Part shown: positions 566 to 32,439 of the stretch, one piece after another
Position numbering within the stretch: position 1 is the first letter of the stretch
Layout: every line of letters starts with the position of its first letter
Assembly (NCBI GenBank): GCA_017450275.1
Contig: JAFSVD010000055.1
Coordinates: 1-49,661, forward strand
Reading direction: 5' to 3'
From: Desulfovibrio sp.
GTDB taxonomy: Bacteria; Desulfobacterota; Desulfovibrionia; Desulfovibrionales; Desulfovibrionaceae
DNA: 49,661 nucleotides
Translations under genes and position numbers: made by a program
The notes under the pieces: model-generated
Database searches by the model: none
Seen by the model: only the letters and a program-made list of their open reading frames with translations
What the model was told of the DNA's origin: nothing

Positions 566-2572
566 CTAGGCAACCGGCTCCTGTTGCTTCATGGTGACAT
601 TCAAGGGCGTTGTCGTGACATTGCCTTCCACGTCAACGGTAGCGGTCCACTCGAAAGTGAAGGGCATAGTTGGGGATTCCTGGCTCGTATATTTGATGGT
701 GATGGCACCCGTCTGGTCGTTTTTGGTGAAGGTGAAGTCCACCGGAGAATGCTCATTGGTATGGGCGTTGACCTGGGGGATGCCGCCTAACAAGGTGGCA
801 CCGACGCCCGCTTGCGCAAGCATCATCATCACACTGTTCGCCTGGTTGATATGTACCGCGCCGCACATCTCCTCAACCTTGTCGCCAACGCGCTGTATAT
901 TGGCGACGCCCTTCGGCTTTCCGTTGGTGTAGAATTTGTCCTCGCCCGGGAAGTTGAAGCCAAAGCCATAGTTGCCCGTTGAAAAATCAGGCTTCATATA
1001 GAGTGCTCCGGTCGTTTTATCAAAGAAATTATTGAAATCCGGACGATCGAGATCCGCCTCAAGGAGATTGCGACCGGCTTTGGTGGTGCCGTCGAAGCCC
1101 GCTAAGTTCACAGTGCCGGCAGAGACGTAGGGTGCCATGGGCGGTATCTCACCTTTTTGCAGTGCCTTGATGGTTTCCGGGAAGGTGAGGCCGGTGTTTT
1201 CCATGGTCAAAAAGACATTATTGGCATTGATATTGTCGCCGTACTTCTTTGGAAGTTCGTTGGCATACTCGTCATATTGGGGTGCCAGTTCTTCTGCAAT
1301 GGTGTTAGTGAAGGTATTTATGGTCTTGTAGTTGTAGTCACCCTTGTCGCGAATGTCCGGGAAGAACTCGTTAAGGATATTCCTGGGGGTCAAGGTGCCC
1401 TGGGCGTACATGGCCTCGGCCTTGTCGAAGTTCTTGAGCAGCCGGGCTATGACCGTGGGTGCATCGCTTATATTGATCTTTGTATACTTGCCGTTGTGCT
1501 GTGTATTGGACTCCTGGACGTTGTTCGCCGGCACGGTGAAGGCGTTGATGGCCGTGTAGATCACGGCACGCTTCTCTTTCGGGATGCTGGCCATGGTCGA
1601 ATAGCACGATTTGCCAAAGCCTGTGGCGAAGAAGTACGTGGCCTGGTTGTTCTTGGCACCGAAGATATTCTCCGCACTGGTCTCATCGAGATTGGCGTTG
1701 GGATTGACGGAAAGTTCCTCAAAGATGAATTTTTCGAATCCCAGTGCGTTGCCTTGGTCTACATTGTAGGTATCAGCGTTGAGCTTGGTGAAGGTGTCGG
1801 CCGTCGCGAAATCATAATTCCCTATCTTATTGCTGGTGCAGTGCTTCGTTGTAGTAACGAGGTCATTGTACCACGTCTTGAAGGAGTTCATGAGGCGCAG
1901 GCCGTTGGCAAAGTTGTCGGGCGATTCCGTGAACCGGCCGCCGTAGCTCATGAGCCGACTTTCATTGGAGCCGGGCGTCGAGAGCCGCTTGATGGCTTCG
2001 GCTCCGTCCATACCGGTGGCAGTGCAGAGCAACTTGGCCACATGGATGAGGTTGGGGAGTTCCGTCTCCTTCCAGCCTATCTTGAGAGCCTGAGCCTTGA
2101 CGGCTCCCTCATCGAGGCTTGCGTCCATCACTTTCTCTTCCATGGCCTTCTTGACTGCCATCAATTCCTTTTCCGTGGCTCTATTGATCTGGGCAATTTC
2201 CTGGTCAACGGCCGTCTTGACCGCCAGGATGCGCCGGGCAGTCAGGGGTTTGCCCTGGCCGTAGTCCTCTTCCTTCATGACGGCTCGCACGCTTGCCGGA
2301 ATTTTGTTCTCCCCGCCGAACATGTTGGCTATGGCCTTCTTGAAGATGGCGCGGGTCTCGTTGTTCATATCCTTCACGTCCTCCGCACGCTTCCATTTCC
2401 CGACCTTGTCATCGTTGTTGGCCGTGATGGTGTGGTTGCCGAGGGACGTCTCTTCGCCCATCTTCGCCACGGACTTCTGGCCCTTGGTGGGGTTGGCCTC
2501 AACCTGCGACTGGGCAAAATCAACGAAATTCCTGAATTGCGCGTTGTATCCGTTGACATCAAAAGCGGGCAT
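566..2572 (-). CDS. 668-aa protein of unknown function, candidate secreted effector
   Basis: No family is recognised. The ATG at 2572 is chosen because AGGAG lies 8 nt upstream; an in-frame start 48 nt earlier would add an arginine-rich peptide and lacks a good ribosome site. The protein begins MPAFDVNGYNAQF. It has no signal peptide or membrane helix until a short hydrophobic, methionine-rich patch near the C-terminus (MMMLAQAGVGATLLGG). It is rich in Asn, Thr and Lys, with helical charged stretches around residues 80-165. The gene stands alone between two direct repeats. Its upstream region carries the same paired motif as the sigma54-activator/sctF promoter and the sctL-side regulatory gap. 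That predicts co-expression with the type III secretion system, so an effector or other secreted substrate is plausible. This role is inferred from regulation only. Confidence 0.75.
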   Translation of the reverse strand: MPAFDVNGYNAQFRNFVDFAQSQVEANPTKGQKSVAKMGEETSLGNHTITANNDDKVGKWKRAEDVKDMNNETRAIFKKAIANMFGGENKIPASVRAVMKEEDYGQGKPLTARRILAVKTAVDQEIAQINRATEKELMAVKKAMEEKVMDASLDEGAVKAQALKIGWKETELPNLIHVAKLLCTATGMDGAEAIKRLSTPGSNESRLMSYGGRFTESPDNFANGLRLMNSFKTWYNDLVTTTKHCTSNKIGNYDFATADTFTKLNADTYNVDQGNALGFEKFIFEELSVNPNANLDETSAENIFGAKNNQATYFFATGFGKSCYSTMASIPKEKRAVIYTAINAFTVPANNVQESNTQHNGKYTKINISDAPTVIARLLKNFDKAEAMYAQGTLTPRNILNEFFPDIRDKGDYNYKTINTFTNTIAEELAPQYDEYANELPKKYGDNINANNVFLTMENTGLTFPETIKALQKGEIPPMAPYVSAGTVNLAGFDGTTKAGRNLLEADLDRPDFNNFFDKTTGALYMKPDFSTGNYGFGFNFPGEDKFYTNGKPKGVANIQRVGDKVEEMCGAVHINQANSVMMMLAQAGVGATLLGGIPQVNAHTNEHSPVDFTFTKNDQTGAITIKYTSQESPTMPFTFEWTATVDVEGNVTTTPLNVTMKQQEPVA

Positions 2573-2701
2573 TCTTGATCTCCTGATGGTTAGGATGTGG
2601 CCTCTGTGTCTCCTTCTCAAGGAGATCGAACCAGGCTATCTATATGAACGAGGAATATTTTATATTCCTGTCACTGAATGCTGGCAAGGGCTTATCAGGG
2701 G

Positions 2702-2758
2702 GCGCTCATTTCGTCATTTTTGATGCGCAGAAGATAGATTAACCGTTCATTTTTGGTG
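2702..2758 (-). promoter_or_regulatory. Paired upstream motif (putative activator sites) for the 668-aa gene
   Basis: Read on the minus strand there are two copies: ATCAAAAATGACGAAATG (2724-2707), framed by GCGC dyad ends, and a weaker ACCAAAAATGAACGG about 33 bp further upstream (ATG at 2750). They lie 135-185 bp upstream of the ATG, a typical distance for enhancer-type sites. Similar pairs occur at 21921-21967 and 28780-28837. A GG-N10-GC pair at 2613-2600 could be a weak sigma54 promoter, giving a start near 2588 just ahead of the AGGAG, but the rest of its -24 box is poor. Confidence 0.5.
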
Positions 2759-5544: not shown

Positions 5545-5548
5545 ATAT

Positions 5549-19439: not shown

Positions 19440-19685
19440 CTAGCCTGTACGCTGAGCCAAAGACTTCAGCATGTCTTGGAGACTCTTTGTGATGGATGAG
19501 ATCATCTCCATCTTCGCATTATATTGTCCCATGGCAAATTGCACCTTGAGCATTTCCGCTTGGTCAATCGTGCCATCCTTGTTAGAACTCAGGTTCTTGA
19601 TCTTTTCCTGTAAACTCTTGCCATCGGCTTGAATACTATTCAAACCGTTTTGGAACATTGTTCCGATACTCAATCCGTCAGCCAT
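19440..19685 (-). CDS. sctF: Type III secretion needle protein SctF
   Basis: 81 aa, all-helical subunit of the extracellular needle (YscF/PscF/MxiH family). Shown by size, a helix-turn-helix layout and the C-terminal signature VQFAMGQYNAKMEMISSITKSLQDMLKSL. The mid-region NKDGTIDQAEML replaces the NP-containing turn of YscF. ATG 19685 has AAGGAG 6 nt upstream. Notable location: it is 20 bp behind the sigma54 activator gene and about 25 kb from its likely chaperone pair at 44641-45239, whereas in Yersinia-type clusters yscE, yscF and yscG are contiguous. It is the last gene before a terminator, so it should share the sigma54-type promoter at 21819. Confidence 0.9.
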   Translation of the reverse strand: MADGLSIGTMFQNGLNSIQADGKSLQEKIKNLSSNKDGTIDQAEMLKVQFAMGQYNAKMEMISSITKSLQDMLKSLAQRTG

Positions 19686-19705
19686 ATGGTTCTCCTTCAT
19701 CCGCA

Positions 19706-21799
19706 TCAGGGGGTATCTCCCATCCGCGATTGCAATATATTCTGTACCGTTAACCCTAAACGTTTCATTCTCGAATTCAACGTCGTCCGATTCACCCCGA
19801 GCATGGCCGCAGCCCCTCTGGATCCTGCGATCACCCCATTGCACACACGCACAGCGTGGGTGATGGCCTTGATCATGGCTTCATCGGATTCTTTCTTGGG
19901 AAGACGGGGCGCATCGGGTTCTTGAACCGTTTGGACGCGCTGTCCCTGAAAAACGCTCCCGTCAAGACATAGGCTTGTTCCCTGCGTCAATATCACCGCC
20001 CGTTCAATGACATTGGCCAATTCGCGTACATTGCCAGGCCAAGGCTGTGAGCACAGCCAATCGATGCCGCTTTGCGGAATCGATGTGATCGTTTTCTTCA
20101 TCCTTTTTGCGTGTTCCTGCATAAAATGCAGGGCAAGAAGGGGAATATCTTCGCGCCGTTCCCTGAGAGGAGGAAGACGAATGGGAAAGACATTCAGGCG
20201 ATAGTAGAGGTCGTCGCGAAAACGCTTTTGCTGCACCATGGCCAAAAGATCTTGATTGGTGGCAGCCACAAGGCGCACATCGATCGGAATCACACTCTGC
20301 CCACCCAGCCTCTCCAGTTCCCTGGACTGCAGGATGCGAAGCAGCTTGGGCTGAAGAGCCAAGGGCATATCGCCCACTTCGTCGAGCAGAAGGGTACTGC
20401 CATTGGCAATCTCAAAACGCCCTTTGTGCTGGCGATTCGCTCCGGTAAAGGCGCCTTTCTCGTAGCCAAACAATTCGCTCTCAAGCAAGGTTTCCGGCAC
20501 AGCAGCGCAATTGATCTTCACCATCCGCTGCTCTTTTCGTTGGCTTGCCATGTGGATGGCTTCAGCCACCATCTCTTTGCCCGTGCCTGTCTCCCCAAGG
20601 AGGAGCACCGTGCTGTCGCTCTTTGCGACCATGGAAACCTGGTATAAAACGTGTTCTATGGCCGGACTCTGGCCGATGATGGTGCCGCCCCCCCATTGCT
20701 GGGCGATTTCCGACGAAAGATAGGCGTTTTCCTCAAAGAGTCGTTCGGCCTTCAGTCGTACACTGGCGTATTCGGTGGCGTTGCGGACAGCCAAGGCAAC
20801 GGCATGGCCGATTTGCAACAAAAGACTGACGGCATCTCTCGTAAAACTTTCGATCGCTGTGTGCGCCAAGGCAAGAACACCCAAGACGTTTTCCTGAAAA
20901 ATCAGCGGTATCGCACACACAACACGGTTGTTGGCTGCCAAAAAATTCGCGACAAGCGGATCGTGGGCTGCCATATCCACAAGCTGCGCGTGTTGCAGGA
21001 TGTGGGGGCTCTCCAGGGGAGCCAGCGCCTGGCAAAGACTTGCTGTACGGGCAATACGGCGCTCTCCTGTGCCCAAACTCGCTTGCCCAGACTTCGCACA
21101 CAAGACAAGAACCTGTTCGCCGTCAAAGAGCTCCAAGCCCACATCGTGCAAGGCAAAAAAGCGTCGAATGTCCAAGGCGAGCATATCGAGCATGGCCTGG
21201 GTGTGCAAAGAACTCATCGCCACATTGGTCACAGCCACCAGGATGTTCAACTGATCGCGTTCCTTGCGCAAGGCATCGCGCTCAAGCTGCGCTTCTTCCT
21301 GCTGCAAAAACTGCGAAACCTGGGCTGTCACAAATCCCCGCAAGAGGCGACAAAACGGCAATGCTTGGGTATCAAAGGCCTGCTCACTGGTGCGGATAAC
21401 CATCAAGACCGCGTAGTAGCCAGGCACTTCCACAGGCAAGGGCAAGAGCAAGATATGGCGGGCGTCTTGGGGAATGACGCGTTTTGCCACCTGGAATGCT
21501 TCCAAAAAACGCTCTTTGGTGAAGATCGCAGGCTCTTGCTGACGAAACAAGGCGTATTTGCCCTCGAGCAAACGATCGATGGGCGTGCAATCGCAACTTG
21601 TTGCTGTCGTATCGAGTGAATAGATTCTGGCGTGCTCCTGTAAGGGGGTCTCTATCATGAGAAGAACCCGTTCAAAAGGAAGCAGCGGCGTACAACAGAA
21701 TTTGAGCAGACGCAACAGTTCCGGAATATTCTTTTGCAGCGGAAACAAATGGGATGCGGCTAAAACAGCATCCACGCCGCTTGCGTCGTGTGTTTTCAT
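19706..21799 (-). CDS. Sigma54-dependent transcriptional activator (FhlA-like, GAF-AAA+-Fis HTH)
   Basis: About 697 aa. A GAF-like region occupies about 20-165 and a second GAF 185-340. The AAA+ domain follows with Walker A GETGTGKE at 402-409, the sigma54-contacting GAFTGA at 449-454, LLLDEVGDMPLALQ and the RFRDDLYYRLNVFP region. A Fis-type helix-turn-helix closes it (RGAAAMLGVNRTTLNSRMKRLG). GAFTGA intact means it should open sigma54 promoters. It has no receiver domain, so control is by ligand or protein contact. Candidate starts are ATG 21799 or ATG 21805. A near-consensus -24/-12 promoter (21819-21834) lies right before them, with two motif copies upstream, suggesting autoactivation. sctF follows 20 bp downstream. 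Confidence 0.95.
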   Translation of the reverse strand: MKTHDASGVDAVLAASHLFPLQKNIPELLRLLKFCCTPLLPFERVLLMIETPLQEHARIYSLDTTATSCDCTPIDRLLEGKYALFRQQEPAIFTKERFLEAFQVAKRVIPQDARHILLLPLPVEVPGYYAVLMVIRTSEQAFDTQALPFCRLLRGFVTAQVSQFLQQEEAQLERDALRKERDQLNILVAVTNVAMSSLHTQAMLDMLALDIRRFFALHDVGLELFDGEQVLVLCAKSGQASLGTGERRIARTASLCQALAPLESPHILQHAQLVDMAAHDPLVANFLAANNRVVCAIPLIFQENVLGVLALAHTAIESFTRDAVSLLLQIGHAVALAVRNATEYASVRLKAERLFEENAYLSSEIAQQWGGGTIIGQSPAIEHVLYQVSMVAKSDSTVLLLGETGTGKEMVAEAIHMASQRKEQRMVKINCAAVPETLLESELFGYEKGAFTGANRQHKGRFEIANGSTLLLDEVGDMPLALQPKLLRILQSRELERLGGQSVIPIDVRLVAATNQDLLAMVQQKRFRDDLYYRLNVFPIRLPPLRERREDIPLLALHFMQEHAKRMKKTITSIPQSGIDWLCSQPWPGNVRELANVIERAVILTQGTSLCLDGSVFQGQRVQTVQEPDAPRLPKKESDEAMIKAITHAVRVCNGVIAGSRGAAAMLGVNRTTLNSRMKRLGLTVQNILQSRMGDTP

Positions 21800-21818
21800 T
21801 CGCATTTGCCCCTTATTC

Positions 21819-21834
21819 AGCAAAAACAGTGCCA
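21819..21834 (-). promoter_or_regulatory. Sigma54 (-24/-12) promoter of the activator-sctF operon
   Basis: Read on the minus strand the sequence is TGGCACTGTTTTTGCT, matching TGGCACRNNNNTTGCW at every position but one, with the correct GG-N10-GC spacing. The predicted start (about 21808) is only 3-9 nt before the candidate ATGs, and the AAGGGG box would lie upstream of it. Either the message is nearly leaderless or translation starts further in. Confidence 0.7.
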
Positions 21835-21920
21835 CACAGAAAAAAGCCTTTCCATACGCCTGTATGCCCTGTCTTCTTCCCTTTATCCCAGACAAAGACG
21901 CCCAGACGCCCTGCTATTTC

Positions 21921-21967
21921 ATCATTTATGACGAATCGCTTCTCCACAGCAATCCAAAATGACGATA
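21921..21967 (+). promoter_or_regulatory. Paired upstream activator motif, activator/phosphatase intergenic region
   Basis: Two copies lie 31 bp apart: ATCATTTATGACGAA (21921-21935) and CCAAAATGACGATA (21954-21967). They are about 105-140 bp upstream of the -12 element at 21820, a usual enhancer distance. The rest of the 362-bp gap to the phosphatase gene (22162) shows no good sigma54 promoter in the plus direction. Confidence 0.6.
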
Positions 21968-22161: not shown

Positions 22162-24150
22162 ATGACCCTTCAAACCAAACTCTCTCTCTCTGTTGCGACA
22201 GCTGTTGCCTTGAGCATTCTTCTCACGCTCATTCTCACATGGAGACAAGTCTCAACCGTCACCATTACAAAAGAAGAAGAGCATTTTGCGTCATTGGGAA
22301 AAACAATCGAACAAAACCTTGAGGCGACCTTCCACGAATACCTGGCAGCACGGGTTCGCATCGTGCTGGCAACCAAGGAGCTTCTCCGTTCAAGCAGCAC
22401 CGACGCCAAGCACGATATCGCGGTGATTGAACACCATATCCCTCCCTCTCCTGAACAAAACACCTTGCGCCTCGAATTGCTCTCCAACCACACAAACACC
22501 CAACAGATATCCCAATCGCCCCCTTGCGAGCTCTTTCTCTCCACAACAACCGATCTCATAACACATGGCCTTCCTGCCCTCCATATTCCCCCGCAAGCGT
22601 ACGATGCCTACGATTTCTATCTCGGCGACACCGTGGCACTGATCCCCGCAAAAGGCTCCTTTTCCATCATTACCACAAATCAGTCGAATAACCCTATCCT
22701 GCTCTTCATGCTGCCCATCGAGCCTGGCTCAATCGATGAGAGCCAAACAATCGTCTACGACCGCCTCATCGTGGCAGGAACCCCCTTGCGCAGCCTTTTC
22801 AAGGAAGCGGAAGAACTGTTGCGCGAACGCATCGACACAGCCAAGATCAATTTTGAAAACATCACGTTTTACGATCAGGGCTGCCTTTTGCTGAAAAGCA
22901 ATACGGGCGAAGATCTGATCGACAGGGGCGAAAGCGCAGCCATACGCGATCTTCTCCCCGATCTCTGTGGCATGGCCAAGGAAGACGACAACGTGACCGA
23001 GCATGTGCAAACCGAAGCCGGCACCTATCTCTGCCATGTGGCCTGGATTCAATGCTACGACTATTACCTGATCATGGCTGTGCCCATCGACGTCTTGCGC
23101 GCAACCACCAAGGAATTGATCAAACGCCTCATCGTCACCTCTGTTGCCTGTCTGCTTTTGGCCTGCCTCTCAACACTCTGGATGCTCATCCAAAGCCTGC
23201 GCCCGTTCGGCGTCCTGGTTGCCTGCACCAAGGAAATGGCAGGGCTCAATCCCTCGGTATCCACGGAATTGGACGCCATGGAGACCATGGTGAGCGAGCG
23301 CCTCGATGTGCATCGCCACGACGAGCTGGGGGATCTGGCACGCTCCTTTGCCGCGATGAGCAAGGAATTGGCGAACAATATCCGCACCTCCCTCGAGGTG
23401 ATGACAGCCCAAAAACGGCTTGAGGGTGAATTGTCCGCAGCCAGGGATATTCAAATGAGTATCCTGCCCACCCTGGATGACTCCTCAACCGAAGAAAATT
23501 TTGCTGTGGCTGCCTTTCTTGAGCCAGCGCTCGAGGTCGGCGGGGATCTCTACGACTGCTTTCCGATTGAGGATGGACGCAAGGCCATTGTGATTGGCGA
23601 TGTCTCGGGAAAAGGCGTGCCGGCGTCGCTCTTTATGACCATGTCTGTCACCTTGATCCGCTTTGCCCTGCGCTCCACCCCCTCTCCAGCCCAAGCCATG
23701 ACCCACGTCAACACCCTCCTGGAGGAACACAATTCAGGCAGCATGTTTGTCACCCTCTTTATAGGGCTCTTTGATCCCCAAACCGGCGATCTCCACTATG
23801 CCAATGGCGGCCATTGCCTGCCCTATATCCTGGCGCAAGACGGAAGCATCAGACAGCTTGAAAACCTAAGCGGCCCCTTGGTCGGCGCCATGCCAGGCCT
23901 CGTCTACACCGACTTCCACGATACCCTACAAATTGGCGATCGCTGTTTTCTCTATACCGATGGCCTCACTGAGGCCATGAACGCCAACAAAGACCTTTTC
24001 GGCGATGCCAACGTGGCTGCCTCCCTCACCAAACACGCGACCCTTTCGCCAAGCCTCCTCGAAAAAGCCGTGTTTGAGGATATCTGCCAATTCAGAGGAA
24101 CAGAGCCACCCTCAGACGATATCACCATGCTCACCATCGCCCGTCTTTGA
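22162..24150 (+). CDS. RsbU-like membrane PP2C (SpoIIE-type) serine phosphatase with HAMP
   Basis: 662 aa. A helix at about 9-27, a periplasmic sensing region to about 310, and a second helix at about 325-345 lead into a HAMP-like segment and coiled coil. The SpoIIE phosphatase domain (about 420-660) keeps the metal-binding motifs: VGGDLYDCF, VIGDVSGKGVPASLFM, ANGGHCLPYIL, LYTDGLTEAMN and PSDDITML. Enzymes of this type dephosphorylate an STAS anti-anti-sigma protein in partner switching. The STAS and kinase genes lie 1.1 kb downstream on the other strand (25262-26045), so this is their likely phosphatase. Bordetella BtrU is a precedent controlling a T3SS. It is divergent from the sigma54 activator. 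Confidence 0.93.
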   Translation: MTLQTKLSLSVATAVALSILLTLILTWRQVSTVTITKEEEHFASLGKTIEQNLEATFHEYLAARVRIVLATKELLRSSSTDAKHDIAVIEHHIPPSPEQNTLRLELLSNHTNTQQISQSPPCELFLSTTTDLITHGLPALHIPPQAYDAYDFYLGDTVALIPAKGSFSIITTNQSNNPILLFMLPIEPGSIDESQTIVYDRLIVAGTPLRSLFKEAEELLRERIDTAKINFENITFYDQGCLLLKSNTGEDLIDRGESAAIRDLLPDLCGMAKEDDNVTEHVQTEAGTYLCHVAWIQCYDYYLIMAVPIDVLRATTKELIKRLIVTSVACLLLACLSTLWMLIQSLRPFGVLVACTKEMAGLNPSVSTELDAMETMVSERLDVHRHDELGDLARSFAAMSKELANNIRTSLEVMTAQKRLEGELSAARDIQMSILPTLDDSSTEENFAVAAFLEPALEVGGDLYDCFPIEDGRKAIVIGDVSGKGVPASLFMTMSVTLIRFALRSTPSPAQAMTHVNTLLEEHNSGSMFVTLFIGLFDPQTGDLHYANGGHCLPYILAQDGSIRQLENLSGPLVGAMPGLVYTDFHDTLQIGDRCFLYTDGLTEAMNANKDLFGDANVAASLTKHATLSPSLLEKAVFEDICQFRGTEPPSDDITMLTIARL

Positions 24151-24157
24151 GCGAATA

Positions 24158-24186
24158 AAAAACCCACCAAAAGGTGGGTTTTTTTA
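24158..24186. terminator. Bidirectional intrinsic terminator
   Basis: AAAACCCACC and GGTGGGTTTT around AAAA with A- and T-tails, between the convergent phosphatase and lytic transglycosylase genes. Confidence 0.9.
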
Positions 24187-25272
24187 GTGGCGCTTTTTTT
24201 TTGCTTTTGGCTGCATCACTGTGGCGTGTTTGCGCTGCAGACGTTTGGGCGCTTTTTTGGGATGATGCCGAAGCAGCGGTTTTTGCTCGTTTTTTCCCTC
24301 AGCGCTTTGCTGCCAAAAACCCACAACCCGCTGCACAAAATTTTGGGTCTCCCGATAGGGCGGAATCCCCTTGTATTTGTCCACAGCCCCCATCCCCGCG
24401 TTATACGCAGCCAAGGCGAGTTCAGGAGAACCATAGCGGGTGAGCAGTATTCGGAAATAGGCTGCTCCGGCCATGATATTGGCCTTGGGGTCAAAGGGGT
24501 CTTTCAGACCAAGATCCTGTTGCGTGGCTGGCATGATCTGCATAAGCCCTTGAGCGCCCACAGGGGAGACGGCCTTGGGATCAAAATTGGATTCAACTCG
24601 AATCACCGCCCATATCAAGTGGGGATCGAGCCCATAGGTCTTGGCCGCATTCTCAATCATCGCTTCAACATCTTTGTTGGAGGATAGAAAACGAGAACGC
24701 CCGCCCCCACGCGGCCACCTGCCAGAAGATCGAAGCCTGAGCAGATGCGCTGAAGGGGACAGGGCGTAGAGATCGGTTATGCCAAGCTGCGCTAAATAGG
24801 CACGCGCTGAGAGTTCCGCCTGGTCTTTGTGCGGCATGGTGTTGGGCTGTTTGGCCTCACGGATCACAAAAACACGACGCGCGGATTTTGGTTTTTGCTG
24901 GGTGCTTCGCCAGGCATGAACAAGGCTGGCAACAATCGATTCCTGCTCAGTGGCTTCCGCAGGATGCAAATGGATGCGTGTTGGAAGCACATTGTTCGTT
25001 TCACTCGTATGCCATAGAATCCTGGGTCCCAAGGCACCTTTCCCGTATCGATCGTCGATTACGGGGTGGGAGGAAGCCTTTTGCGCAAGCGATGCCTTCT
25101 CGTTTTTTTTCAAAAGCGAGACAAAGGACTCATCCACAATCAAGGCAACCGTGGTTACGGTCTTGACAACGTCCTTCGGAACCTCTCGCTCAACAGGCTT
25201 TTTGGCACAGCTCACAAGCCCCAGAGCCACCAGAAAGGAGACGAGGATCCTGTGGCTCCAATCAGTCTTCAT
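24184..25272 (-). CDS. Lytic transglycosylase lipoprotein (SLT family), T3SS-linked
   Basis: 362 aa. The start at ATG 25272 gives a lipoprotein signal (HRILVSFLVALGLVSC) with Cys at the lipobox. The N-terminal 190 residues are unassigned. The C-terminal SLT domain (about 205-315) has the catalytic Glu227 in WAVIRVESNFDP, followed by GAQGLMQIMPAT and LALAAYNAGMGAV. A basic Lys/His-rich tail ends it. It cleaves peptidoglycan glycan strands, and such enzymes (IpgF, EtgA type) open the wall for T3SS assembly. It overlaps the anti-sigma kinase by 11 bp and so forms one operon with the STAS and kinase genes. No independent ribosome site is seen. Confidence 0.9.
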   Translation of the reverse strand: MKTDWSHRILVSFLVALGLVSCAKKPVEREVPKDVVKTVTTVALIVDESFVSLLKKNEKASLAQKASSHPVIDDRYGKGALGPRILWHTSETNNVLPTRIHLHPAEATEQESIVASLVHAWRSTQQKPKSARRVFVIREAKQPNTMPHKDQAELSARAYLAQLGITDLYALSPSAHLLRLRSSGRWPRGGGRSRFLSSNKDVEAMIENAAKTYGLDPHLIWAVIRVESNFDPKAVSPVGAQGLMQIMPATQQDLGLKDPFDPKANIMAGAAYFRILLTRYGSPELALAAYNAGMGAVDKYKGIPPYRETQNFVQRVVGFWQQSAEGKNEQKPLLRHHPKKAPKRLQRKHATVMQPKAKKKRH

Positions 25273-25699
25273 GCACGGAAAAATACACTTCGACGGTATT
25301 GCTGCCGTCTGACCCACTGTAGGCGTAATGACTCGTGATGTGCTTCACTAAATGCACACCAAGCCCCCCTATCTCCCGTTCCTCAACGCTAAGGGATGTG
25401 TCTGGCGTTGCTATCTGACGAAACGGATCAAAGGGGCGCCCCCAATCCTTGATCCACACACCAAATTGATCCTCGCCATCCAAATTGACCCAACGACAGC
25501 CTAAGAGAAAAACAGGAGGGTCGGTTTGTTTGGCACTGATGTCTGGATAGGCATAGTTCACAATATTGATCAGCAATTCCTCAACCGCCAACTCGACATG
25601 GGAGGCTAAAGCAGCATGCTTCTCGCCAAGTTGGGAACGCAAAAAGTCCATTGCCTTTGGAATAAAATCCATGCTTGCCGTAAAAGTCTGCTCAGGCAT
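25262..25699 (-). CDS. RsbW/BtrW-like anti-sigma factor serine kinase
   Basis: 145 aa, HATPase_c GHKL domain. The N-box is HVELAVEELLINIVNYAY and the ATP lid region is KDWGRPFDPF plus EIGGLGVHLVKHI. In Rsb/Btr systems such a kinase binds a sigma factor or other target and phosphorylates the STAS protein. It overlaps the STAS gene by 8 bp, so the two are made together. No sigma factor gene is adjacent, and the target is unknown. Confidence 0.92.
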   Translation of the reverse strand: MPEQTFTASMDFIPKAMDFLRSQLGEKHAALASHVELAVEELLINIVNYAYPDISAKQTDPPVFLLGCRWVNLDGEDQFGVWIKDWGRPFDPFRQIATPDTSLSVEEREIGGLGVHLVKHITSHYAYSGSDGSNTVEVYFSVHED

Positions 25700-26045
25700 T
25701 GCCGCCTCCTGTCTGGAGCGCGGCTATCCCCGCATTGCGATCGGCAAAAACCTTGAGCATACGGTCAAAACCAGAAATACGAAAGACTTCGGTGACCATG
25801 GGCTGCAAACTGCAAAAGGCCAAGCCGCCCTTCTTTGCCATAGCTTTCTTGGCGAGCCCAAGAAGGCTTCGAAGGCCTGCTGAGCTGATATAAACCAAAT
25901 CGGTCATATCAACTAAGATACGGTTTTCCCCTTCTTGCAAAATTTTTTGCGCTTTTTCGTCAAAGTCTGCGGTTGTGGTGGCATCCATTCTGCCACTCAA
26001 GGCCATAACCGTGCACGCCGTATCCTTGCTGACCGTAATATCCAT
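25692..26045 (-). CDS. STAS anti-anti-sigma factor (RsbV/BtrV-like)
   Basis: 117 aa. ATG 26045 is chosen (GGGGGAG just upstream) since the STAS fold begins MDITVSKDTACTVMALSGRMDA. The phosphorylation site region is DLVYISSAGLRSLLGL, with two consecutive serines as in RsbV-type proteins. It is first in an operon with the kinase and the lytic transglycosylase, and is a likely substrate of the phosphatase at 22162 and the kinase at 25262. Confidence 0.92.
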   Translation of the reverse strand: MDITVSKDTACTVMALSGRMDATTTADFDEKAQKILQEGENRILVDMTDLVYISSAGLRSLLGLAKKAMAKKGGLAFCSLQPMVTEVFRISGFDRMLKVFADRNAGIAALQTGGGNA

Positions 26046-26137
26046 TTCTCCCCCGTGAGTATCGAGATAGACGCATTGGGCATTATTCAAGAGCGTATGC
26101 ATACGCAACGCTTCCCCAATGCGTATATCGCCTGCTA

Positions 26138-27724
26138 TCACGAAATGTCAAAATATTCGAGTCCTCGAGAACGCCGTTGCTGATCCCCGGACTCCTGGCC
26201 GGAATTTTCCACCGTCACACGCACCCGCTCTCCCCGCGTCTCTAACGCAGCCACAAGCGATTGCTGCCCTTGCACGGCTGTCTGGAAGGCCTGGGCATTG
26301 GCGCAGAGCACTTTCACGGCCAGCTGCCCATCGTTCCCCCGAACAATCGAAAACTCCGTTCCCTTCAAGGTTCCTTCGCCAAGCGTGATCCGAACTTCCT
26401 GCTCACCGTTCTTGCTTTCAGACACTAAAATTTGCGAAGCGATCTTTTCCGCCATATCGACGAGATTGTTCGCAGCAGGTGCTTGTGGGGGTGGCGGCGG
26501 TGCTGCCGCTTCCATGCGATTGGCAAAAAGATTGTCGATCAAGGATGTGTTGGATGGCATGGTGTGCAACGGCAGCCCATCCTCCCCTTCGAGCGTCTCA
26601 ACGTATTCTGCCATACGCACATTGGCCTGCTCGCTTGAGACTCCCTCGGGCTTCCTTGTCCCAGCCATAGCAAAGGCATGCGATGTCGTCTTTTCTGTGC
26701 TTGCCTGCATCGCGTTGCCCACTGCCTCAAACGGGCTCTGTCTTGTCTTTTCTGCAGCCAGCTGCCCTGCACTCTCAAAGCCCATTTGTGCCTTGTTTTG
26801 CCCTGCCTCAAACGGACTCTGTATTGTCTTTTCTGCTGCCAGCTGCCCTGCTCTCTCAAAGCCCGTTTCTAGCTTGGTTTGCCCTGCTTCAAAGGGACTC
26901 TGTGTCGTCTTTTCTGCAGCCAGCTGTCCTGCACTCTCAAAGCCCATTTGTGCCTTATTTTGCCCTGCCTCAAACGGGCTCTGTATTGTCTTTTCTGCTG
27001 CCAGCTGCCCTGCTCTCTCAAAGCCCGTTTCTAGCTTGGTTTGCCCTGCTTCAAAGGGACTCTGCGTCGTCTTTTCTGCTGCGGGCTGTGTCTGGGTCAA
27101 GAGCTGCGATGCTTTGCCCGCTGCTTCAAAGGGATTTTGCGTTGTCTTGTCTGCTGCGGGCTGCGTCTGGGTTAAGAGCTGCGATGCCTTGCCCGCTGCT
27201 TCAAAGGGGCTCTGTGTCGTCTTTTCTGCCACAAGCTGGCCTGCTTCAAACGGCCTTTGCTCTCCCTTGAAAACAGCTGTGTCAGGGGCACCAGCTTTGG
27301 CGCGTTCGGAAGCAAGAGACACAGAGGATGCATCAAAACCTCCTGCTGAATCTGCCTGCTTTGCTGAAAAAGCCCCCCGATCAAGACGACACATGCCATC
27401 CTGGCAGGATGCTTCGGCAAAAAGCGTATGAGAGGCGCTCTGTGGTGCATCGGAAGGGGCTGCTTGATGCGATTGGGTATCTCTCTGCTTTGCCCCCAAA
27501 TCAAGACGACACATCCCATCCTGACAGTGTGCGCCTTCATGTGGCTTGGGTAAAAAAGGAAGGGACATGCCTTCGTCATTTTCTGCCAAAGGATTGTTCT
27601 GCCCCTCAAACAAGGACGAAAAGTGCGCTACCTCCTCAGGAGAAGGATTGATGGCCTGGCTTGGGATGGCGTCCCTGAGACCTTGGCCTACCTGAGAGGG
27701 GCGATTGGCTGTATCGATTTGCAT
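26138..27724 (-). CDS. sctP: Needle-length/switch protein SctP (YscP-like) with internal ruler repeats
   Basis: About 528 aa. ATG 27724 begins MQIDTANRPSQVG, and upstream in-frame codons are unlikely starts. The N-terminal part has a duplicated CQDGMCRLD motif. Residues about 166-348 are tandem repeats: two 25-residue units then four 27-residue units (pattern AEKTxQSPFEAGQ...GFExAGQLA) plus a partial. A Pro-rich stretch (PPPPPQAP) precedes the C-terminal FliK/T3S4-like domain (about 420-510: EVRITLGEGTLKGTEFSIV and SLVAALETRGERVRV). FliK/YscP proteins set needle length and switch substrate class. Location next to sctL and the repeat architecture support this. It is 80 bp downstream of sctL. 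Confidence 0.85.
   Translation of the reverse strand: MQIDTANRPSQVGQGLRDAIPSQAINPSPEEVAHFSSLFEGQNNPLAENDEGMSLPFLPKPHEGAHCQDGMCRLDLGAKQRDTQSHQAAPSDAPQSASHTLFAEASCQDGMCRLDRGAFSAKQADSAGGFDASSVSLASERAKAGAPDTAVFKGEQRPFEAGQLVAEKTTQSPFEAAGKASQLLTQTQPAADKTTQNPFEAAGKASQLLTQTQPAAEKTTQSPFEAGQTKLETGFERAGQLAAEKTIQSPFEAGQNKAQMGFESAGQLAAEKTTQSPFEAGQTKLETGFERAGQLAAEKTIQSPFEAGQNKAQMGFESAGQLAAEKTRQSPFEAVGNAMQASTEKTTSHAFAMAGTRKPEGVSSEQANVRMAEYVETLEGEDGLPLHTMPSNTSLIDNLFANRMEAAAPPPPPQAPAANNLVDMAEKIASQILVSESKNGEQEVRITLGEGTLKGTEFSIVRGNDGQLAVKVLCANAQAFQTAVQGQQSLVAALETRGERVRVTVENSGQESGDQQRRSRGLEYFDIS
26675..27229 (-). repeat. Tandem coding repeats in sctP
   Basis: Near-identical DNA repeats with a 162-bp superunit (two 81-bp units) present twice, preceded by two 75-bp units. 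They code for the ruler-like region. The high DNA identity, including silent sites, suggests recent expansion and allows length change by recombination. Confidence 0.9.
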
Positions 27725-28680: not shown

Positions 28681-28779
28681 ATACAGAAAGACCTTCTCCC
28701 CTCCCCATTTGCTGCGTCCCTTTCAATGCCCTCTCCCCTCAGCACGCACAATACCAATATTGAAAACAACATTCAAATT

Positions 28780-28837
28780 CATTTGTGACGAAAGCACAAC
28801 AAAAACGTCATCAGAGCTCATCATTAATGACGAAATG
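28780..28837 (+). promoter_or_regulatory. Paired upstream activator motif in the sctL / plus-operon gap
   Basis: Copies are CATTTGTGACGAA (28780-28792) and ATCATTAATGACGAAATG (28820-28837), 42 bp apart. The second lies in a dyad framed by GAGC and GCTC. They sit 80-125 bp upstream of the -12 of the strong promoter at 28895 and could also serve the weaker divergent one. Confidence 0.6.
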
Positions 28838-28894
28838 CTCCGCACGCTTTCCGCAAATATCCTATATACTGCCCGTCTTCAAACGAGCGCGCCT

Positions 28895-28910
28895 TGGCAT
28901 ACGCTTTGCT
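28895..28910 (+). promoter_or_regulatory. Sigma54 (-24/-12) promoter
   Basis: TGGCATACGCTTTGCT matches the consensus TGGCAYRNNNNTTGCW fully, with GG-N10-GC spacing. The predicted start is near 28921. An intrinsic terminator lies about 110 nt on, before the first T3SS gene of the plus strand at 29290. Confidence 0.7.
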
Positions 28911-28920
28911 TTTCCTGTGA

Positions 28921-29032
28921 CGAGCATGCGAACGCAAAAAAAAGAATCGCCGCTTGAGCATTTTTGCAAAAAACGCTACTTTTCATACATATCAATTTGG
29001 TTGAAACCGCGCCCCTTTATGGGGCGGTTTTT
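28921..29032 (+). ncRNA. Candidate sigma54-dependent small RNA or attenuated leader
   Basis: It runs from the predicted start of the promoter at 28895 to the end of a terminator hairpin, about 112 nt. A frame beginning MRTQKKESP starts only a few nt in and reads through the terminator; it has no ribosome site and is not supported as a gene. It may be a free sRNA or a leader whose terminator is sometimes bypassed to reach 29290. Confidence 0.4.
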
Positions 29033-29036
29033 AGCA
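29004..29036 (+). terminator. Intrinsic terminator / attenuator
   Basis: AAACC(GC)GCCCC pairs with GGGGCGGTTT around TTTAT with a 2-nt bulge, followed by a T-run. A second inverted repeat (GCCGGGTATAT with ATATCCCGGC, about 29043-29094) follows. From 29095 to 29289 I see no gene or clear promoter. Confidence 0.7.
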
Positions 29037-29289: not shown

Positions 29290-29517
29290 ATGAGTCCATC
29301 CAATATCGAAACCCAGAATGCATCCCTTGACCGCATCAAACAAGAGATTTCCCACCTGGAAGAACAAGAAAAACAGTTGCGCAAGACGCTGAATCTTGCT
29401 GACGGTGAGCCTCTCCCTGATGTCACCATGACACCTGAACTGGCCGCGATGCTCGCTCAGTCAAAGGCCAACGCAGCCAAGGCTGGGGCAGACCGTGCAG
29501 CCAAAACGCTTCAATAG
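29290..29517 (+). CDS. Small helical T3SS-island protein A (75 aa)
   Basis: Unknown function. AGGAAG lies 6 nt before the ATG. An N-terminal charged coiled coil (HLEEQEKQLRKTL) is followed by MTPELAAMLAQSKANAAKAG. It is clearly paralogous to the next gene at 29555: EKQLRK, a Pro-turn, MTPE/LTPE and an Ala-rich tail align. It is the first gene of the plus-strand T3SS run. Size and helicity would suit a small chaperone, an early substrate or a structural adaptor. Confidence 0.7.
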   Translation: MSPSNIETQNASLDRIKQEISHLEEQEKQLRKTLNLADGEPLPDVTMTPELAAMLAQSKANAAKAGADRAAKTLQ

Positions 29518-29554
29518 CCTGTGACAATCTTTGTAGAGGAAAAGGATAATCTCT

Positions 29555-29851
29555 ATGTTTACAGAAGAAGATCTTAAACGGCAAAATGAAGAGTTCGAAA
29601 AAATTCAAGAAGAATTTGCTCGACTCCAAGAAATGGAAAAGCAGCTCCGAAAGAACATGGGTCTCCCCGAAGAGGGAGGCATTCCTGAGGCGACACTGAC
29701 CCCTGAAATCGAAGCCACCTTCGAAGAGGCCAAGGCCAGAGCTGCTCGGGAAGGAGCTGCCCGTGCCACGCAATTCCAAAGTCAGGCACAAACAACCACA
29801 GCTGCTCCTCTTCATCCTGGAAGACGCCGTGCGGGTATTGTTCGGTTATAA
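29555..29851 (+). CDS. Small helical T3SS-island protein B (98 aa), paralogue of A
   Basis: Unknown function. AAGGA lies 8 nt before the ATG. It has an acidic coiled coil (EEFEKIQEEFARLQEMEKQL), then LTPEIEATFEEAKARAAREGAARA, and a Gln/Thr- and Arg-rich tail absent from protein A. The 37-bp spacing shows it arose by tandem duplication in the same operon. A hairpin follows. Confidence 0.7.
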   Translation: MFTEEDLKRQNEEFEKIQEEFARLQEMEKQLRKNMGLPEEGGIPEATLTPEIEATFEEAKARAAREGAARATQFQSQAQTTTAAPLHPGRRRAGIVRL

Positions 29852-29864
29852 ATTGACGGCGAAA

Positions 29865-29889
29865 AACCCACACTCAAGAGTGTGGGTTA
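29865..29889. terminator. Hairpin, terminator-like mainly on the minus strand
   Basis: AACCCACACT and AGTGTGGGTT around CAAG. The T-run is on the minus-strand side; on the plus strand AAAAGC follows, so plus-strand termination may be weak. Confidence 0.5.
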
Positions 29890-29992
29890 AAAGCATCTTT
29901 GATTTGACAAATATGCGAAATAAAAATGTTTTAATAACAATTAAGGCGAATCCGTTCTTGCTCAAAAACAGAAAAGAGCGGAGTATCATGTA

Positions 29993-30532
29993 ATGACCCT
30001 CCAAGATACCGCCACTCTTTGCGCAAAGCACGACGAAGCATCCGTCTTGTCGGCCATTGCCCAACTCTCAGGTCTCCCCCTTGAAGAGGTCAAAGCCCTG
30101 TATGCCAAGGCCATCAAGGAAGCCAGTTTGGCAAAAACCTTCAATATCCCGGAGCAATCGCTTGAAACAGGCTATACAATGGCCTGCAACCTTCTGGCGA
30201 GTGGACGCTACCACGATGCCCAGACGATGTTTCGTGCCCTGTGCCAATACAAGGTGACGGTTCCAAAATTCTGGTTGGGTCTTGGGTCTTGCCTGGAAAA
30301 ACTGGGTATTTTTCGGGAAGCCGTTTTTTGTTTTGCTCATGCAGCGGATTTGGGAGAACCACTGAACCCAAAACCCCTGTATCTTTTAGCGCAATGCTGT
30401 TTTTCCATGCAGGATGTTGATGCCGCAAAACGAGCGCTTGAGCTGGCCGTTGTCGCTGGTTTGACCAACGATACCGAACATCAGCACTACCGAACCCTCG
30501 CCAAGGAAATGTTGCAGCAACTTCCTGCGTAG
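29993..30532 (+). CDS. SycD/LcrH-like TPR chaperone 1 for translocators
   Basis: 179 aa, class II T3SS chaperone. TPR-type helices run from about residue 60: YTMACNLLASGRYHDAQTMFRALC, FWLGLGSCLEKLGIFREAVFCFAHAADLG and PLYLLAQCCFSMQDVDAAKRALELA match the LcrH/SycD pattern. GGAG stands 9 nt before the ATG. It lies just upstream of the two translocator genes, as chaperone genes usually do, and should hold SctE and/or SctB in the cytosol before export. Confidence 0.9.
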   Translation: MTLQDTATLCAKHDEASVLSAIAQLSGLPLEEVKALYAKAIKEASLAKTFNIPEQSLETGYTMACNLLASGRYHDAQTMFRALCQYKVTVPKFWLGLGSCLEKLGIFREAVFCFAHAADLGEPLNPKPLYLLAQCCFSMQDVDAAKRALELAVVAGLTNDTEHQHYRTLAKEMLQQLPA

Positions 30533-30599
30533 CTGAATACAAAAAAGACACCCCATATACGGAGGATGACGCAGAAAACCCTCTGCGTTCAAAACGACT

Positions 30600-31634
30600 A
30601 TGTCACAGATTCAAAATACGACCGATGCGGCCTCATTAGCAGAACAACTCCAACAACTTCTCAACCTCACAGATACAACAGAGGTCGCCTTAAAGGAGTT
30701 GCAGTCAAAGACGAACACATCCGAGCTTCCTCCCGATATCAAGGAGGCTATGGAGAAGCTCCAAAAACAATTCGCAGACCTACCACAGCTCAAAGAGCCA
30801 GGCATGTATGCGGGAAATACTGTCTTGGATCTTGAGATATTGATCAAAGCGATCGGCGATCAAGTACGACAATCGGAGACAAAAAGCGGTATTGCCTCAA
30901 TCAAGGCCAATACCCAGCAAATGGAAATAAAAAATCAGGAAAAGCTCGAAAAAGTTCAAGAACAGTTGGAAAAGACCAAAAACGCCAGCATCTGGGACAA
31001 AATCGCAACGGTCTTTAAGGCTATTGCCGCTGTTGCCACCCTGATTGCCGGGGCAGTTATGATCGCAACGGGCGTTGGCTCTATCGGCGGCGCGGCCATG
31101 ATTGCCGTTGGTATATCGCTCGCCGACAACCTCCTCAATACGATCGGGGAAATGACAACAGGCCATGGCTTTGGCATATCAGGTTTCATCGCATGGGGCG
31201 TTGGTGCCATATCAGGCAGCGAGGAGGCTGAATCGTGGACACGACTGGGGCTTGGACTCGCCATAGGAATCGGATGCGCTATTGTCACGTGTGGCGCAGG
31301 GGCTGCGTCGCAGGCTGACAAGATAGCCAAGATAGCCACGATCGTGCAAAAGGCTGCTGCCATAACCCAGACAACAGCCGGCGCTGCCGGCGCGGTGTCG
31401 AGCGCGGTCAGTGCGGTCTATACCTATGAGGGTTCAAAGGCTGTTGCTGAGCAGAAGCGCTTGGAAGCTATTTTGGAAAATATGAATATGATGAACGAAC
31501 TGATCAACAAGCATTTGAAAGCAGTGCTTGAAGACAGCCAGAACGTTGCCAACAGCGTGAAGGAAATCATCGACAATAATGTCGAGGCGCAGACAGCGAT
31601 CATCACCGGCGGTGGCGGAGCAGCTATGGCCTAA
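30600..31634 (+). CDS. sctE: Major hydrophobic translocator SctE (YopB/IpaB-like)
   Basis: 344 aa. An amphipathic N-terminus and a coiled coil at about 100-128 (EKLEKVQEQLEKTK) lead to a long hydrophobic region at about 137-175 (AAVATLIAGAVMIATGVGSI) and a second at about 191-237 (GLGLAIGIGCAIVTCGAGAA). A C-terminal helical part ends in GGGGAAMA. Two membrane segments with this layout are typical of the pore-forming translocator inserted in the host membrane. It lies between a SycD-like chaperone and the SctB gene. The ribosome site is weak. Confidence 0.88.
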   Translation: MSQIQNTTDAASLAEQLQQLLNLTDTTEVALKELQSKTNTSELPPDIKEAMEKLQKQFADLPQLKEPGMYAGNTVLDLEILIKAIGDQVRQSETKSGIASIKANTQQMEIKNQEKLEKVQEQLEKTKNASIWDKIATVFKAIAAVATLIAGAVMIATGVGSIGGAAMIAVGISLADNLLNTIGEMTTGHGFGISGFIAWGVGAISGSEEAESWTRLGLGLAIGIGCAIVTCGAGAASQADKIAKIATIVQKAAAITQTTAGAAGAVSSAVSAVYTYEGSKAVAEQKRLEAILENMNMMNELINKHLKAVLEDSQNVANSVKEIIDNNVEAQTAIITGGGGAAMA

Positions 31635-31692
31635 ATCTGTACATCTGACACAACGAGCCAATCAACCGCATTACCTGCCAAAGGAGAAAACC

Positions 31693-32439
31693 ATGTCCCA
31701 GGTTAACAATAATTCCCAGATCCCCCAGAATTTCCCCTTCTTCGACAACAACCCAATCGAAAACAAAAAAATTCAAGAGCAAATTAAACTTTTCTACCAG
31801 CAGGCATCCGATGTTCCGAAAGAAGGCACAAAGGGGTCAGATTCCGCAGATAAAGGTTTTACGCCGGATCTCCCGAAGACGACCAATCCGGCGTCTATTC
31901 AAGATTTGATGCTTGCCAATCTGTCGCCAGCAGCGCAGCTAGCAGCCATGTATGTCCAAGAATCTGCCAAACAAAACGAATTAAATCAAAAATTGCTGTT
32001 GGAACAATCAAAAGATGTGCAAGCCAACATGGAAAAGCAGGCGGAAAACATCGAAAAGGGTGCCATGCGCCAGATGGTGACCGCTATGGTCGGGGCTGGG
32101 GTATCGCTGGCTGGTTGTGCTATCAGTGCCGTTCAAATTGCCAAGATACCCAACAACCTCAGCTCCGAGCAATTTCAAAAGGCCATGAACGTCCCCAACT
32201 TAACTCAGAAAATAGGGCAATCGCTCGATACAACTATCTCAAGCGGTGGTGTCTATGGCAATGCCCAGACACAAAAAGACAATAAGAAATTGGATGCGAC
32301 CATAGAACAACATCGAACCAATATGGAGGCTCTGCGCAACTCCATGCAGGCACAACGTGACCTGATTGGGAAATCCATCGACTTCATGAACTCCATGCAA
32401 TCGAGCATGAACCAAACTCGGGCACGGATTTTAGGCTAA
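31693..32439 (+). CDS. sctB: Minor translocator SctB (YopD-like)
   Basis: 248 aa. ATG 31693 has AGGAG 6 nt upstream. The polar, Asn/Gln-rich N-terminus precedes a single hydrophobic segment at about 127-151 (TAMVGAGVSLAGCAISAVQIAKI), and a C-terminal amphipathic coiled coil (ATIEQHRTNMEALRNSMQ) follows. This is the one-helix architecture of YopD/IpaC-class translocators, and the gene directly follows SctE. Confidence 0.85.
   Translation: MSQVNNNSQIPQNFPFFDNNPIENKKIQEQIKLFYQQASDVPKEGTKGSDSADKGFTPDLPKTTNPASIQDLMLANLSPAAQLAAMYVQESAKQNELNQKLLLEQSKDVQANMEKQAENIEKGAMRQMVTAMVGAGVSLAGCAISAVQIAKIPNNLSSEQFQKAMNVPNLTQKIGQSLDTTISSGGVYGNAQTQKDNKKLDATIEQHRTNMEALRNSMQAQRDLIGKSIDFMNSMQSSMNQTRARILG

What the first reader, a model, noticed from the sequence alone, without database searches (positions are those of the whole stretch)
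28780..28910. Shared paired motif marks a T3SS sigma54 regulon, with members at three loci in the window
Seen: a motif with core CAWWWATGACGAA occurs in pairs upstream of the activator-sctF operon (ATGACG at 21928 and 21959), in the sctL gap (28785 and 28827) and upstream of the 668-aa orphan (minus strand, ATG at 2717 and 2750). Pair spacings are 31, 42 and 33 bp, about 3-4 helical turns. I found no other pair when scanning ATGACG/CGTCAT sites by eye. Two of the three loci also have strong -24/-12 promoters. Inference: these are the enhancer sites of the activator at 19706, and the motif defines its regulon.
Basis: partly seen in the sequence, partly recalled or inferred. Interest (0 to 1): 0.8.

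Follow-up and report, generated by a model that had tools for sequence, protein, structure and literature searches.

The report
FhlA-type enhancer sites controlling type III secretion
A DNA motif next to a bacterium's protein-injection machine looks like the landing site of a relative of FhlA, the formate-responsive activator of E. coli, which suggests that a regulator of fermentation was rewired to switch on type III secretion.

Summary
The motif is real but is an inverted repeat, TCGTCA-N4-TGACGA. Recovered de novo from relatives' promoters without the window, it ranks the window's sites 21918 and 28817 first and second of 49,644 positions, and 2710 third. The first two lie 92 and 70 bp from -24/-12 promoters: of the activator gene, and of the translocon operon (SycD-SseC-SctB, + strand). 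Control of sctL is not excluded but has only a weak promoter. The third locus has one weak site, no sigma54 promoter, and 0 of 7 homologues share it. The activator at 19706 is an FhlA-family protein, and the same matrix finds E. coli FhlA targets (3 of 5 regions) and formate-hydrogenlyase promoters of relatives. Of 17 genomes with an FhlA-type gene, 11 have a close type III secretin and no close HycE; the other 6 have HycE and no such secretin (one has a SctN-like ATPase). Best reading: an FhlA-type activator and its enhancer were rewired between formate hydrogenlyase and type III secretion. Binding is untested and formate as signal is open. The D. vulgaris precedent, DVUA0100, appears to be a different activator.

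The parts
21918..21935 (+). enhancer palindrome TTCATCATTTATGACGAA upstream of the activator gene, centred 92.5 bp from the -24 element
   Evidence: rank 1 in the window with a matrix from relatives; distance
   Evidence: score 5.3, rank 24
21819..21834 (-). sigma54 -24/-12 promoter TGGCACTGTTTTTGCT of the activator gene
   Evidence: 15 of 16 consensus positions
19706..21895 (-). FhlA-family sigma54 activator: GAF, AAA+ with GAFTGA, Fis-type HTH; the true start is probably at or after 21805
   Evidence: Pfam, FhlA as best NCBIfam model but below its cutoff, tree
19440..19844 (-). needle/inner-rod subunit (SctF/SctI-like), same strand, overlapping the end of the activator ORF as listed
   Evidence: weak NCBIfam hits below cutoff; homologues beside the activator in 6 relatives
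28817..28834 (+). enhancer palindrome CTCATCATTAATGACGAA upstream of the translocon operon, centred 69.5 bp from the -24 element
   Evidence: rank 2; distance
28775..28792 (+). weaker second site AAATTCATTTGTGACGAA
   Evidence: score 9.7, rank 6
28895..28910 (+). sigma54 -24/-12 promoter TGGCATACGCTTTGCT pointing into the translocon operon
   Evidence: 14 of 16 consensus positions; promoters at orthologous places in G162 and G246
28741..28756 (-). weak sigma54-like element TGGTATTGTGCGTGCT facing sctL, its -24 end also 69.5 bp from the centre of the 28817 site; may be chance
   Evidence: 12 of 16 positions; 59 such on the minus strand of the window
29010..29035 (+). terminator-like hairpin with T-run inside the about 370-nt leader
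29290..29517 (+). 75-aa small ORF, first of the translocon operon
   Evidence: sequence
29555..29851 (+). 98-aa small ORF, resembles by eye the first protein of the relatives' translocon operons
29993..30532 (+). SycD/LcrH-type translocator chaperone
   Evidence: NCBIfam TIGR02552 just above cutoff
30600..31634 (+). SseC-like translocon protein
   Evidence: Pfam PF04888
31579..32439 (+). SctB-like translocon protein
   Evidence: NCBIfam NF038055, below cutoff
2710..2727 (-). weak single site upstream of the 684-aa orphan; not supported by a promoter or by homologues
   Evidence: score 16.6, rank 3; homologues; no element of 11 or more facing the orphan
566..2620 (-). 684-aa orphan protein, doubtful regulon member

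Best explanation
The motif is an upstream activating sequence of the FhlA type (TCGTCA-N4-TGACGA). The FhlA-family activator encoded at 19706-21895 binds it as a dimer through its C-terminal Fis-type helix-turn-helix (inferred), assembles its AAA+ ring, and opens sigma54 promoters about 92 bp away (its own gene) and about 70 bp away (the translocon operon 29290-32439). This gives autoactivation plus coordinated expression of translocators. The regulator family and its site are shared with formate hydrogenlyase control; in this lineage the activator goes with type III secretion, and a close HycE is absent. Shown by computation: the palindrome, its conservation, the spacing, promoter-like elements and the regulator's family. 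Inferred: binding, direction of control, autoactivation. Open: whether the ligand is still formate, and which setting came first.
For: De novo search of all 6-mer half-sites with gaps 0-12 in four relatives' promoters (window unused) gives TCGTCA-N4-TGACGA with 2 mismatches in total; runners-up at 5-6 are shifts or outward arrangements of the same half-site, and the first unrelated ones score 7. A matrix from relatives ranks 21918 and 28817 first and second in the window; none of 100 simulated windows reached them. Seven of 7 further relatives' activator promoters have a site of 18.5-25.2, each above 300 of 300 simulations; an eighth, G228, has no upstream DNA held. A site is centred 91.5-92.5 bp from the -24 element in 6 of the 7 activator promoters where a -24/-12 was recognised; spacers are barely alike (30% identity, 27% shuffled). 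E. coli: hycA-hycB 19.9, fdhF 18.6, hydN 18.4; 0 positions at or above 16 in 150 kb of control DNA. Formate-hydrogenlyase-linked promoters of G154, G190 and G200 have the site 76.5-77.5 bp from the -24 element, E. coli fdhF 78.5. Tree: both kinds of activator join apart from four other family activators, 97/97. Secretin at 65-100% identity in 11 of 11 and HycE at 77% or more in 0 of 11 type III-linked genomes; the reverse, 0 of 6 and 6 of 6, in the others. Type III loci without the activator (G126, G232; 35 kb each): 0 sites at or above 15 though sigma54-like elements are present.
Against: No binding or expression data. The 12 training sites, from two relatives, were picked partly with the window's consensus; only one search is free of this. 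E. coli hycA and hypA upstream regions gave no site (4.1, 9.0), one E. coli hit of 16.7 lies inside hycE, and the E. coli consensus in a review, CATTTCGTACGAAATG (PMC4987338, passages), is not this palindrome. No -24/-12 at threshold in 3 of 7 further activator promoters (G218, G266, G277) nor at the G266 translocon promoter. In G246 and G264 the site at the fixed distance is a weaker one (15.5), and promoters with several sites give several chances to fit; G260 is at 58.5 and 80.5. Strict sites also occur in genomes without the gene (44 in 63, against 28 in 16 with it; my sums). G123, formate-linked, also has a SctN-like ATPase (72%). Two of the 11 (G260, G265) have only the SpoIIE gene, not sctF, recognised near the activator. 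In G228 gene order differs and its place in the tree is unsure.
Confidence: 0.87

Rival explanations
1. The sites belong to a D. vulgaris DVUA0100-type regulon, the known Desulfovibrio type III sigma54 activator.
For: Kazakov et al. 2015 (PMC4641369, outline and passages) predict that DVUA0100 controls two divergent type III operons with sigma54 promoters; SctN of the D. vulgaris RCH1 plasmid is 84% identical to the window's.
Against: The RCH1 activator next to sctU (575 aa, GVATG; taken as DVUA0100's counterpart) aligns with the window's only around the AAA+ region (43% over 303 aa). The D. vulgaris sctW-translocon gap has no site scoring above 6.1. Two type III loci without the FhlA-type gene lack the motif.
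Confidence: 0.05
2. A different dimeric regulator encoded elsewhere binds the palindrome, and the FhlA-type activator binds other sequences.
For: Binding was not tested; palindromes with GTCA/TGAC halves are reported for another activator, the yGTCA-N6-TGACr repeat predicted for DVU2894 (PMC4641369, passage).
Against: The motif goes with the FhlA-family gene in type III clusters, formate clusters and E. coli targets; in 10 of 16 genus genomes with the gene a strict site lies within 25 kb of it on the same contig (my distances). HTH segments of the two groups are 52% identical on average.
Confidence: 0.08
3. Chance matches near type III genes.
For: ATGACG alone is not clearly enriched (26 against 19.9; 9 of 100 shuffles as many), and the third locus is weak.
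Against: Exact palindromes occur twice in the genome held, both here, in front of sigma54 elements; conservation and spacing.
Confidence: 0.01

Closest known systems
FhlA / formate hydrogenlyase regulon of E. coli
   Same: Regulator family (42% over 578 aa), GAFTGA, HTH, residues E183 and E363; enhancer palindrome at fdhF, hydN and hycA-hycB; sigma54 element 78.5 bp away at fdhF
   Different: Target genes are type III secretion; no close HycE in the genome held; N-terminal region only 26% alike between the groups; below NCBIfam's FhlA cutoff (517 of 830 bits)
DVUA0100 regulon of Desulfovibrio vulgaris (PMC4641369)
   Same: sigma54 activator encoded in a type III cluster, predicted to control type III operons and a candidate effector
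   Different: Different activator (similarity found only around AAA+, GVATG); palindrome absent from its sctW-translocon gap
HrpR/HrpS of Pseudomonas syringae and the Chlamydia sigma54 regulon (search listing and abstract starts only)
   Same: sigma54 linked to type III secretion, with enhancer-binding proteins
   Different: HrpR/HrpS control hrpL; that neither uses an FhlA-type sensor is recalled

Membership tests
FhlA family of sigma54 activators | Similarity beyond AAA+, including the N-terminal region | tested here: met
   Aligns with E. coli FhlA 119-686 (42%) and Yersinia frederiksenii FhlA over 93% of the query; groups with FhlA/HyfR in the tree
FhlA family of sigma54 activators | Intact GAFTGA loop and Fis-type HTH | tested here: met
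   GAFTGA and C-terminal segment by sequence and alignment
FhlA family of sigma54 activators | Curated FhlA equivalog model above cutoff | tested here: not met
   PRK15429 is the best model, 517 bits against cutoff 830: kin, not an equivalog
FhlA family of sigma54 activators | Formate-linked residues E183 and E363 | tested here: met
   E183 in 11 of 11 and E363 in 10 of 11 type III-linked activators (gap in G228); no proof of the ligand
FhlA family of sigma54 activators | Binds formate | not testable with these tools
   reported for E. coli FhlA (PMC11291172, abstract and passages)
FhlA-type enhancer (UAS) | Same palindrome at E. coli FhlA targets | tested here: met
   3 of 5 upstream regions: fdhF, hydN, hycB; not hycA or hypA
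sigma54-dependent promoter | GG-N10-GC -24/-12 element at enhancer distance | tested here: met
DVUA0100 regulon | Orthologous activator and shared motif | tested here: not met

The most novel reading that the evidence does not exclude
Type III secretion in this group of Desulfovibrio relatives is directly switched on by formate through an FhlA-type sensor. The regulator passed from formate hydrogenlyase, in lineages without that enzyme, together with its enhancer grammar, and in relatives it recruited scattered chaperone-effector genes.
Probability: 0.4. Interest if true: 0.86.

Novelty: new variant of a known kind. Interest (0 to 1): 0.74.

Why it matters
It gives a concrete, testable case of a metabolic sigma54 activator and its enhancer shared between, and exchanged across, fermentation and a host-contact machine, with the two settings exclusive in the 17 genomes tested (apart from a SctN-like ATPase in one). 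It predicts a signal, formate (abundant in guts: recalled), for type III secretion in sulfate-reducer relatives, whose type III function is little known (recalled). It also offers an FhlA enhancer form that unites E. coli and Desulfovibrio-type promoters.

Tried and rejected
Third locus (2710): kept only as doubtful. In 7 homologue upstream regions (own C46, three of G228, two of G204, the N-terminal copy of G246; 121-400 bp each) no site scores above 2.6; one of them (G228 C17, second copy) has a 13 of 16 sigma54-like element. A further G228 copy (C235) was not tested.

sctL as target: not excluded. An element of 12 of 16 (28756-28741) faces sctL, its -24 end also 69.5 bp from the 28817 site; such elements occur 59 times on the minus strand of the window. 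A better one (14 of 16, 29208-29193) faces sctL from beyond the site.

A stand-alone small RNA from 28895, because of the terminator-like hairpin: not excluded; the promoters at the orthologous place in G162 and G246 lead to the translocon operon with a short leader.

DVUA0100 as the same regulator: rejected. Fixed pair spacing as a signature: rejected; spacings range from 20 to about 92 bp.

Other sites in the own genome: of 20 places with at most 1 mismatch, four are in the window; C41 68/86 is a tandem pair at a contig end; C46 2208/2239 has a second site and a sigma54 element but no clear gene downstream; C63 scores 15.6; the remaining 13 outside the window score under 15. In one search the rows for G154, G190 and G200 show no site because the ORF taken as gene start lies too far downstream; their sites are. 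Rfam at gathering thresholds found nothing in the window.

Not-in-print: full-text searches (listings and abstract starts only) showed no paper whose title or abstract start links FhlA to control of type III secretion; one search found no paper with all its terms. The library lacks most subscription journals.

Full report
Observation. The window is a whole contig (C37) of an unnamed 1.84 Mb, 74% complete genome. The conserved unit is an 18-bp inverted repeat: TTCATCATTTATGACGAA at 21918 and CTCATCATTAATGACGAA at 28817, with a weaker TTCGTCATTTTTGATGCG at 2710.

Independent recovery. In four promoter regions of two genus mates (activator and translocon promoters of G162 and G246), an exhaustive search of 6-mer inverted repeats with gaps 0-12 found TCGTCA-N4-TGACGA as best, with 2 mismatches over the four regions. 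Runners-up at 5-6 are shifts or an outward arrangement of the same half-site; the first unrelated ones score 7 (the four best per gap were kept). A symmetric matrix of 12 sites from these genomes ranks 21918 (22.2), 28817 (21.7) and 2710 (16.6) first to third in the window. In 100 simulated windows none reached 21.7 (highest 20.8), and 0.04 positions per window reached 16.6. The 12 training sites were picked partly with the window's consensus; one search is the test free of that. In the genome held, the exact form TCRTCA-N4-TGAYGA occurs twice, both here.

Promoters and targets. -24/-12 elements lie at 21834-21819(-) and 28895-28910(+). The first precedes the activator gene, with an SctF/SctI-like gene beside it on the same strand. 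The second points to + strand genes: a 75-aa and a 98-aa ORF, a SycD-type chaperone, SseC- and SctB-like proteins. In G162 and G246 sites lie between SctW and the corresponding small ORF-SycD-SseC operon, with a sigma54 element 85.5 bp from the site centre. So the 'sctL gap' site most clearly serves the translocon. A weak element (12 of 16) faces sctL at the same 69.5 bp from the site, so divergent control of the sctL operon is not excluded.

Architecture. Activator promoters of seven further relatives (G218, G248, G260, G264, G265, G266, G277): 7 of 7 have a site of 18.5 or more, each above 300 of 300 simulations; a sigma54 element was recognised in 4 of 7. With window, G162 and G246 that makes seven promoters with both. 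In six a site is centred 91.5-92.5 bp from the -24 element (in G246 and G264 a weaker site, 15.5); G260 has 58.5 and 80.5. Spacer identity over the six is 30% against 27% for shuffled spacers, so distance is kept while sequence is not.

What the activator is. It has GAF, sigma54 AAA+ (GAFTGA) and a Fis-type HTH-like C-terminus. Its best NCBIfam model is FhlA, below cutoff. In the genus 16 of 79 genomes hold a match at E <= 1e-110. Seven have an SctF-like gene beside it (own, G162, G246, G228, G264, G266, G277); G218 and G248 have other type III genes on the same contig; in G260 and G265 only the SpoIIE gene was recognised near it. All 11 have a secretin 65% or more identical to the window's (100% is the own). 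Of the other five, G154, G190, G200 and G275 lie with FdhF, FdhD, MoeA or Hyc genes; G176's surroundings were not read, but its HycE lies about 8 kb away.

Exclusive settings. Among these 16 plus G123: secretin (E <= 1e-40) in 11 of 11 type III-linked and 0 of 6 others; HycE at 77-100% identity in 0 of 11 (best 36-38%; 9 of the 11 are at least 90% complete) and 6 of 6 (the query is G154's own HycE). G123 does have a SctN-like ATPase, 72%. In a tree of 23 proteins both kinds of activator group together against four other family activators (97/97). The formate group is one side of a branch (99/97); the type III group needs one extra step because of the long G228 branch. The tree warns of long branches in the outgroup, and its root is a midpoint.

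The enhancer is FhlA-type. The matrix from type III relatives picks out E. coli hycA-hycB (19.9), fdhF (18.6) and hydN (18.4). In three 50-kb control stretches none reached 16 (maximum 11.9); one hit of 16.7 lies inside hycE. hycA and hypA upstream regions gave no site. At G154, G190, G200 and E. coli fdhF the site-to-promoter distance is 76.5, 77.5, 77.5 and 78.5 bp. A review lists CATTTCGTACGAAATG as the FhlA consensus (PMC4987338, passages); that is not what is found here.

Controls against the reading. Type III loci of G126 and G232, without the activator, have 0 sites at or above 15 in 35 kb each, though sigma54-like elements stand upstream of a translocon operon in each. Strict TCGTCA-N4-TGACGA sites: 28 in 16 genus genomes with the gene (1.75 each), 44 in 63 without (0.70 each); my sums. 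Single hits in coding DNA mean little. In 10 of the 16 a strict site lies within 25 kb of the gene; the own genome has none of the strict form, only the two in which one arm reads TCATCA.

Wider regulon in relatives. In G246, sites precede two CesT-type chaperone plus about 1,166-aa gene pairs and a 778-aa gene. In G162, sites precede two small paralogous proteins and a 678-aa protein; in G265 a site precedes a relative of the 778-aa protein. Only the 778-aa gene of G246 has a fitting sigma54 element above threshold. Several other exact sites in these genomes lie inside ORFs. These look like chaperone-substrate sets; function untested.

Precedent. Kazakov et al. 2015 (PMC4641369; outline and passages read) predicted sigma54 control of type III secretion in D. 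vulgaris by DVUA0100. The counterpart read here, from strain RCH1, resembles the window's activator only around AAA+ and has GVATG, and the sctW-translocon gap there lacks this motif. So sigma54 control of type III genes is known in the group; control by an FhlA-type activator through an FhlA-type enhancer was not seen in the listings of searches.

Formate. E183 and E363, on which formate binding by E. coli FhlA partly depends (PMC11291172, abstract and passages), are kept in 11 of 11 and 10 of 11 type III-linked activators. But the N-terminal region is only 26% alike between the groups, and E363 is kept in HyfR too, so this does not settle the ligand.

The statement that no promoter faces sctL was withdrawn, and the secretin test was added.

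Noticed in passing
window 28922-29035: A terminator-like hairpin with T-run lies about 90-110 nt after the predicted translocon start site, inside a leader of about 370 nt; G162 and G246 have much shorter leaders there: attenuator or small RNA?
   Followed up: partly
G000 C46 (L105) 2089-2260: A site pair 31 bp apart (2208, 2239) with a sigma54 element TGGCATATCTTTTGCT on the minus strand, but no clear gene downstream before an IS66 transposase.
   Followed up: partly
G000 C41 (L128) 68-103: Two tandem 18-bp sites TTCGACAAAAATGACGAT / TTCGACAAAAATGACGTC at a contig end; the target, if any, may be off the contig.
   Followed up: no
window 22162-26141: Partner-switching set (HAMP-SpoIIE phosphatase, HATPase, STAS) inside the type III cluster; the SpoIIE gene lies beside the activator in 6 of the 11 type III-linked genomes as fetched. 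It may add post-translational control.
   Followed up: no
window 566-2620 and homologues L102-L108: The 684-aa orphan has long homologues (own C46, G228, G204), and in G246 only about 68 N-terminal residues are shared, as if the N-terminus were a module.
   Followed up: partly
window 4998-5013 and 5530-5545, minus strand: Two similar sigma54-like elements (15 of 16) without the palindrome nearby.
   Followed up: no
L217 3693, L218 9808: Type III loci of G126 and G232 have sigma54-like elements (15 of 16) upstream of the translocon operon but no FhlA-type gene or site: perhaps a second activator type in the same genus.
   Followed up: no
window 28741-28756, minus strand: A weak sigma54-like element facing sctL mirrors the translocon promoter at the same 69.5 bp from the palindrome.
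   Followed up: partly
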